From a virus: a DNA stretch of 32,393 nucleotides. Shown piece after piece: positions 18,006 through 18,849 of this stretch; positions within the stretch are counted from its first letter, which is position 1, and each line of letters starts with the position of its first letter. Below the pieces are notes generated by a model. The model had not been told where the DNA came from. It saw only the letters and a list, made by a program, of their open reading frames with translations, and ran no database searches. The position numbers and the translations under genes are program-made. The stretch is taken from the IMG/VR virus record IMGVR_UViG_3300025030_000312, positions 1 to 32,393 of that record; one strand, given 5' to 3'.

Positions 18006-18849
18006 ATGAGCAGAGCAGAGCAGAGCAGAGCAGAGCAGAGCAGAGCAGAGCAGAGCAGAGCAGAGCAGAGCAGAGCAGAGCAGAGCAGAGCAGAGCAGAG
18101 CAGAGCAGAGCAGAGCAGAGCAACCGCGATTTACGGTTGCTTGGTTCAGTGCAGGAGTGTCCAGCGCAGTAGCAACTAAACTGATGATCGACGAAATCGA
18201 CCGGATCATCTACACCCATATCGACGACCAGCATCCGGACACCCTGCGCTTTGTGAAGGAGTGCGAGCAGTGGTTTGGTAAGGAGGTCGAAATCCTACAG
18301 TCTCCTTACAAGAACGTGGAGAATGCCTGTCGAATGTCCGGAGGGCGTGGTTATATCAATGGTCCCGGAGGAGGGGCCTGTACCAAGTTCCTCAAGCGAA
18401 GAGTCCGGAAGGAATGGGAACTCGACTACGAGCGAAACTTTCAACTCAGATATATCTGGGGGATGGATTACGGCGAGAAGCACCGCTGCGAGAGGCTGAA
18501 TGAGACCATGCCTGACTACGAGCACGTCTTCCCGCTGGTTGACCACGAGATGACGAAGGAGGACGCCCACAAGGTGCTGTCAGCCAGTGGTATCAAGAGG
18601 CCCATCATGTATGAACTCGGCTACAGCAATAACAATTGCATCGGGTGCGTGAAGGGAGGCATGGGCTATTGGAACAAGATTCGAGTTGATTTTCCGGAGG
18701 TGTTCGAGGCTCGGGCTAAGATGGAGCGGCTAGTTCAGGCTTCCTGCATTAAAGGTGTTTACCTGGACGAGCTTGATCCGGAACGGGGCAGACATGAGAA
18801 GCCTATTGTAGGTGACTGCGGGATTCTTTGTGAGGTGCTGGCGCTGTAG
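18006..18849 (+). CDS. Phase-variable PAPS-reductase-like protein, currently out of frame
   Basis: The ATG at 18006 has a good ribosome binding site (AAAAGGAG, 17994-18001) and is followed at once by 23 copies of GAGCA. In the present length the start frame exits the repeat into a stop at 18179 (57 residues). The body lies in another frame: [19 protein letters not shown] (from ~18127), the PP-loop that binds ATP in the N-type ATP pyrophosphatase/PAPS reductase fold, then the family signatures [41 protein letters not shown]. No ATG, GTG or TTG exists in the body frame before the PP-loop, so the repeat must be translated. One extra copy (24) or two fewer (21) would join start and body. A GTG at 18157 would give a PP-loop-less fragment. 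Phage members of this family are linked to nucleotide or sulfur chemistry, e.g. DNA modification, but their role is not established. Confidence 0.85.
18008..18122 (+). repeat. 23 perfect copies of the pentanucleotide GAGCA
   Basis: 115 bp without a single interruption, beginning inside the start codon. In frame it codes for repeating SRAEQ. Uninterrupted 5-bp repeats at a start codon are the structure of slipped-strand contingency loci. Confidence 0.97.

What the first reader, a model, noticed from the sequence alone, without database searches (positions are those of the whole stretch)
18006..18849. Phage PAPS-reductase-like gene switched by a 23-copy 5-bp repeat
A well-formed start (AAAAGGAG, ATG 18006) runs straight into 23 perfect GAGCA units. 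The gene body, starting with the PP-loop ([12 protein letters not shown]), is in another frame and has no start codon of its own upstream of that loop. Copy numbers that are multiples of three (21, 24) join the two; 23 is OFF. This is the structure of a slipped-strand contingency locus, well known for bacterial surface and restriction-modification genes but rare in phages. A phage-borne nucleotide/sulfur-chemistry enzyme toggled stochastically could vary DNA modification or takeover between sister virions.
Basis: partly seen in the sequence, partly recalled or inferred. Interest (0 to 1): 0.92.

Follow-up and report, generated by a model that had tools for sequence, protein, structure and literature searches.

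The report
Repeat-switched sulfur-enzyme gene in phage
A bacterial virus carries an accessory sulfur-chemistry-like gene whose start is split from its body by 23 copies of a five-letter repeat, an arrangement that in a bacterium is proven to turn a gene on and off as copies are gained or lost; here the gene reads as OFF, and actual switching has not been observed.

Summary
Only copy numbers divisible by three join start and body. The body is not decayed: it keeps all 64 columns that are at least 95% conserved in 50 relatives, with dN about 0.15 and dS saturated. About 240 relatives checked (partly the same contigs) have no repeat. Close relatives of this phage lack the gene; three show a clean empty site, so repeat and gene form one accessory cassette. 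The same unit, with the same multiple-of-three rule, is experimentally proven to phase-vary the Streptococcus suis methyltransferase modS. A second phage contig has a 15-copy GAGCA array at the start of an N6 DNA methyltransferase. The enzyme is a PAPS-reductase-fold ATP pyrophosphatase, nearest to SspD (weakly) and to a solved protein named PptA; it is not CysH, and its substrate is unknown. Switching itself is inferred: one metagenomic consensus, no reads, no length variants of this locus. I call it a probable phage contingency locus, a new variant of a known kind.

The parts
17497..17946 (+). Upstream neighbour gene, DUF7695 protein; left border of the variable spot
   Evidence: Pfam PF24749 E=1e-19; 77-81% nt identity in sister phages
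17947..18851 (+). Accessory cassette (moron): leader + repeat + PP-loop gene; replaced by 3 bp in L108/L109/L111 and by an unrelated small ORF in L112/L113
17954..17977 (+). Terminator-like hairpin ahead of the gene (weak, may be chance)
   Evidence: 3 terminator-like sites found against 1.3 +/- 1.3 in shuffles
17994..18001 (+). Shine-Dalgarno-like AAAAGGAG
   Evidence: sequence
18006..18179 (+). OFF-state reading frame from the ATG: MSRAEQ(n) then stop TAA
18008..18122 (+). (GAGCA)23 perfect pentanucleotide array
   Evidence: 100% match, 23.0 copies
18124..18849 (+). PP-loop / PAPS-reductase-fold ATP pyrophosphatase body ([14 protein letters not shown]...), 241 aa, frame of 18010
   Evidence: phrog_424 E=1.7e-44; PF01507 25.9 bits against cut-off 22.5; AlphaFold pLDDT 91, PAPS reductases best structural matches, Z 14.7
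18852..18880 (+). Intrinsic terminator, conserved in sister phages; right border of the variable spot
18885..20129 (-). Integrase, convergent neighbour
   Evidence: phrog_1 E=1.9e-35

Best explanation
A phage accessory gene under simple-sequence-repeat (slipped-strand) phase control. Translation starts at ATG 18006 and runs through the GAGCA tract. At 23 copies it ends after 57 codons, so the PP-loop enzyme is not made. Gain of one unit (24) or loss of two (21) restores one reading frame and gives the enzyme with an inert (SRAEQ)n N-terminal tail. Slippage during phage or lysogen replication would therefore give a mixed ON/OFF phage population. The enzyme is a standalone SspD-like ATP-pyrophosphatase-fold protein, probably activating a substrate for sulfur transfer, most plausibly for nucleic-acid modification. 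Shown: the anatomy, frames, intact and conserved body, cassette insertion and fold. Inferred: slippage in vivo, ON/OFF protein, selective advantage, and the enzyme's substrate.
For: Frames and the copy-number rule. Body not decaying: 64/64 columns that are at least 95% conserved are kept, dN 0.15-0.25 with dS saturated against seven relatives, no stop in the body ORF. Homologues start 0-7 residues before the same beta strand, so the array sits at the native N-terminus and the 3-copy reading [17 protein letters not shown] looks like the pre-expansion start. Experimental precedent with the identical unit: S. suis modS is made at 18 or 21 GAGCA copies and not at the neighbouring counts (PMC8125046). 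Second phage case: L102/L398, (GAGCA)15 fused to the start of an N6_N4_Mtase (PF01555, 5e-25), whose relatives have no array. Bacterial arrays precede classic contingency genes: Acyl_transf_3 in 6 of 10 and N6_N4_Mtase in 1 of 10 scanned. Arrays at one phage/prophage locus differ in length between contigs: 10, 9 and 24 copies in L092, L095 and L099.
Against: No length variant of this locus was found: a scan for the downstream junction hit no other held contig, and near-identical records may be left out of the collection. No reads are available. None of the gene's relatives carries a repeat, so there is no recurrence within the family. A 115-bp tract in a metagenome assembly may have the wrong copy number. 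Phages are not known to rely widely on bacterial-style contingency loci.
Confidence: 0.62

Rival explanations
1. Unselected microsatellite expansion: a short GAGCA seed at the gene's start expanded recently and broke a dispensable moron. Lengths may still drift, but there is no selected switch.
For: The gene is dispensable (absent in sister phages); no relative has the repeat; the window contains other tandem repeats.
Against: The body is fully conserved with no secondary damage; the same unit sits at starts of known contingency-type genes and of another phage's methyltransferase; a 5-bp unit is the kind that switches frame.
Confidence: 0.2
2. Copy number mis-assembled: the true or majority length is a multiple of three and the gene is simply ON, with a variable (SRAEQ)n tail.
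For: The tract is 115 bp, near the limit of short-read k-mers (general knowledge); IMG/VR record, reads not held.
Against: An error of one unit would still leave a hypermutable tract with the same switch logic; all 23 units are perfect.
Confidence: 0.12
3. The body is expressed irrespective of copy number, from a non-standard start (e.g. ACG 18133 or GTG 18157) or by frameshifting in the tract.
For: The body ORF is open from 18010 and well conserved.
Against: GTG 18157 would delete the first beta strand and part of the PP-loop, which are conserved in the relatives; ACG 18133 has no good Shine-Dalgarno; GAGCA has no recognised slippery heptamer.
Confidence: 0.06

Closest known systems
Streptococcus suis modS phasevarion (PMC6265453, PMC8125046)
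   Same: Identical repeat unit GAGCA at the 5' end of the ORF; ON at multiples of three; similar tract lengths (17-28); DNA-modification gene
   Different: Bacterial chromosomal Type III methyltransferase; in this study's survey many bacterial arrays also sit at a TTGAC/-10 promoter, which the window array lacks; here a phage PP-loop enzyme
phrog_424, phage 'PAPS reductase' moron family
   Same: Same protein family over 235 aa (E=1.7e-44)
   Different: No simple-sequence repeat at the start in about 240 loci checked
SspD (SspABCD single-strand DNA phosphorothioation)
   Same: PP-loop ATP pyrophosphatase, PADLOC SspD profile E=1.5e-10
   Different: No SspA/B/C found among ten window proteins scanned; weak, distant match
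PptA, chain C of PDB entry 21fy
   Same: Closest solved sequence, E=4.3e-50 over 233 residues, including the [19 protein letters not shown] motif
   Different: Entry not among the matches of the structure library (entries to April 2026); its function could not be read here
GAGCA array in phage contig IMGVR_UViG_3300010391_000162 (L102)
   Same: (GAGCA)15 beginning at an ATG (ATGAGCAGAGCA), fused to the native start of a DNA-modifying enzyme
   Different: N6 adenine methyltransferase; an in-frame TTG six bases upstream could make that copy number ON

Membership tests
Simple-sequence-repeat contingency (phase-variable) locus | Perfect tandem tract of non-triplet units within or at the start of an ORF | tested here: met
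Simple-sequence-repeat contingency (phase-variable) locus | Copy number decides whether start and body share a frame | tested here: met
   joined at 3, 21, 24; not at 1, 2, 20, 22, 23, 25
Simple-sequence-repeat contingency (phase-variable) locus | Gene body intact and conserved despite the OFF frame | tested here: met
Simple-sequence-repeat contingency (phase-variable) locus | Length varies within or between populations | tested here: inconclusive
   no second copy of this locus held; other GAGCA loci vary
Simple-sequence-repeat contingency (phase-variable) locus | Protein made only in ON lengths | not testable with these tools
   needs a reporter or Western blot
CysH / PAPS or APS reductase (assimilatory) | Score above the curated family cut-off | tested here: not met
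   NF002537 14.3 bits (cut-off 154); TIGR02055 12.8 (cut-off 235.3)
PP-loop ATP pyrophosphatase superfamily (PAPS_reduct fold) | PF01507 above gathering score, and fold | tested here: met
   25.9 bits (cut-off 22.5); PAPS reductases at Z 12-15
SspD of SspABCD phosphorothioation | SspD profile match | tested here: met
   PDLC02782 E=1.5e-10, 39 bits (distant)
SspD of SspABCD phosphorothioation | Operon partners SspA, SspB, SspC | tested here: inconclusive
   none among ten window proteins; the window is a fragment of a larger phage
modS-type Type III methyltransferase | DNA methylase domain in the switched gene | tested here: not met
   only PAPS_reduct found

The most novel reading that the evidence does not exclude
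Phages use bacterial-style GAGCA contingency tracts to switch nucleic-acid-modification genes (a PP-loop sulfur-transfer enzyme here, an N6 methyltransferase in L102), so that sister virions carry differently modified genomes and hedge against host restriction or modification sensing.
Probability: 0.25. Interest if true: 0.75.

Novelty: new variant of a known kind. Interest (0 to 1): 0.58.

Why it matters
Slipped-strand phase variation is a textbook bacterial strategy; I found no paper in the held library describing it for a phage accessory gene. If real, it means that a virus can keep an ON/OFF mixture of a putative nucleic-acid or sulfur-modification enzyme within one clone. It also gives a locus that can be tested by a single amplicon, with a ready experimental precedent (S. 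suis modS) and a second phage example.

Tried and rejected
1) Recurrence of a repeat within the gene family: 79 relatives and the 5' regions of 160 further loci, partly the same contigs, gave no repeat at the gene start. 2) Other copies of this exact junction: none. 3) DNA relatives in phage and plasmid records: only about 100-bp patches at 76-77%. 4) CysH assignment rejected on curated cut-offs. 5) Ssp/Dnd partners near the gene: none found; relatives' flanks show no constant partner, though DNA methyltransferases recur in 5-13 of 80 loci (descriptive only). 6) sigma70 promoter in front of the window array: none found, unlike many other GAGCA arrays. 7) Meaning of 'PptA': not found in the paper library, nor did the entry appear among the structure-library matches. 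8) Literature on SSR-switched phage genes: nothing relevant. 9) Rfam and tRNA scans: nothing. 10) Relatives cannot be drawn for a virus record.

Full report
OBSERVATION. The sequence is as described: Shine-Dalgarno-like AAAAGGAG, ATG 18006, 23 perfect GAGCA units at 18008-18122, then ACCGCGATTTACGGTTGCTTGGTTCAGTGCAGGAGTGTCC. The ATG frame ends at TAA 18177-18179. The frame of the downstream body (stop TAG 18847) is closed upstream by TGA 18007-18009, which overlaps the ATG, and it contains no ATG/GTG/TTG before GTG 18157, inside the PP-loop. A frame table over hypothetical copy numbers shows that ATG 18006 reaches the body at 3, 21 and 24 copies and not at 1, 2, 20, 22, 23 or 25. So the recorded state is OFF.

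WHAT THE BODY IS. It matches phrog_424, annotated as phosphoadenosine phosphosulfate reductase in the moron/AMG class (E=1.7e-44), and Pfam PF01507 just above its cut-off. It fails the curated phosphoadenylyl-sulfate and APS reductase models by a wide margin, so it is not assimilatory CysH. PADLOC gives SspD at E=1.5e-10. The closest solved sequence is 'PptA', PDB 21fy chain C, E=4.3e-50. That entry did not appear in the structure library, and no text on it was found. A model built from 51 phage homologues (pLDDT 91) matches PAPS reductases first (Z 14.7), and below them GMP synthetases, TtuA, LarE and other PP-loop enzymes. Invariant C86, C172, C175, C232 and C236 would suit an Fe-S cluster (inference). 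A sulfur-activating ATP pyrophosphatase acting on nucleic acid or a nucleotide is the most plausible class; the substrate is unknown.

IS THE GENE ALIVE? All 64 columns conserved at 95% or more in 50 relatives are kept by the window copy. Against seven relatives dN is 0.15-0.25 with dS saturated. The reading frame is uninterrupted to its stop. A gene permanently silenced for long would not look like this. Very recent silencing cannot be excluded.

WHERE THE REPEAT CAME FROM. In 79 homologous phage loci the gene mostly starts 0-7 residues before the first beta strand (M-x-T-V-S-W-F-S-A-G) and has no repeat. Another 160 loci, partly overlapping, also have none at the gene start. The three-copy reading [17 protein letters not shown] fits that start, so the tract probably grew from a short GAGCA seed at the N-terminus. 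Sister phages, found through the terminase and integrase (roughly 70-91% nt identity in aligned blocks), lack the gene. In L108, L109 and L111 window 17946 is joined to 18852 with 3 bp between, and in L112/L113 an unrelated small ORF of about 100 codons occupies the spot. A protein search of those five records found no copy elsewhere. The leader, repeat and gene are thus an accessory cassette in a variable spot between a DUF7695 gene and a conserved terminator next to the integrase. Two sister records are 82 and 103 kb and encode polymerase-, ligase- and helicase-like proteins (read from the translations, not by a family search), so the window is probably a fragment of a larger phage.

THE UNIT HAS A TRACK RECORD. 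In Streptococcus suis the Type III methyltransferase ModS carries (GAGCA)n at its 5' end. Fragment analysis shows length variants within strains (PMC6265453), and protein and methylation appear only at 21 copies (modS1) or 18 copies (modS2) in sets of three consecutive lengths (PMC8125046). I scanned public contigs for (GAGCA)6. IMG/VR gave 21 stretches and the GTDB genomes at least 117. In phage contig L102 a 15-copy array begins at an ATG (ATGAGCAGAGCA) and is fused to the native start of an N6_N4_Mtase gene whose relatives have no array. There the ATG is out of frame with the body, but a TTG six bases upstream of the array is in frame, so ON or OFF is ambiguous. Three related contigs (L092, L095, L099) carry 10, 9 and 24 copies between near-identical flanks, so such tracts do vary in phage/prophage DNA. 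In bacteria, six of ten scanned downstream bodies are Acyl_transf_3 and one an N6_N4_Mtase, the usual kinds of contingency gene.

MECHANISM AND DOUBTS. Best reading: slipped-strand phase variation of a phage moron, OFF in the consensus. The anatomy, frame logic, conservation and cassette nature are shown. Slippage, protein switching and benefit are inferred by analogy with modS. The weakest points are that there is one consensus sequence, no reads, and no second copy of the locus, and that the tract length of 115 bp lies where short-read assembly can miscount. A one-unit error would change the inferred state (ON or OFF) but not the switch architecture. The main rival is an unselected microsatellite expansion in a dispensable gene.

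NOVELTY. SSR contingency loci, and GAGCA in particular, are known in bacteria. A phage-borne one on a PP-loop enzyme cassette, with a second phage methyltransferase case, was not found in the literature searched. The held library is open-access only, so this is not proof of absence. I class it as a new variant of a known kind.

Noticed in passing
L082-L102, L119-L235 (arrays), e.g. L149, L190, L229: 71 of 126 distinct (GAGCA)>=6 arrays have TTGAC starting about 29-35 nt before the array's left edge (2.2% at random positions), with a -10-like box usually after a 17-nt spacer and the array edge mostly 3-5 nt past it: GAGCA tracts sit at predicted transcription start sites in many Firmicutes and gut phages. 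The S. suis modS PCR primer (PMC8125046) ends in the same TTGACAGCC context. The reason is unknown.
   Followed up: partly
L150, L156, L160, L193, L221, L229: GAGCA arrays directly precede Acyl_transf_3 (surface O-acyltransferase type) genes, often out of frame with the nearest start: possibly undescribed phase-variable acyltransferases.
   Followed up: partly
26586-27272: HNH endonuclease ORF between the portal and downstream head genes; missing in sister phages L107-L109 and L111, where 26573 is joined almost directly to 27338: another insertion.
   Followed up: no
7268-7453: 15.5 copies of a 12-bp in-frame repeat inside ORF 7973-7077 (-), encoding SVRASVRD-type tetrapeptide repeats: length, not frame, would vary.
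   Followed up: no
10839-11020: 7.6 copies of a 24-bp repeat between divergent ORFs; function unknown.
   Followed up: no
12659-13663: Radical-SAM-like phage protein (phrog_24834, E=1e-112; Pfam Radical_SAM below its cut-off); a radical-SAM-like ORF also recurs in 7 of the 80 loci around PAPS-like genes.
   Followed up: no
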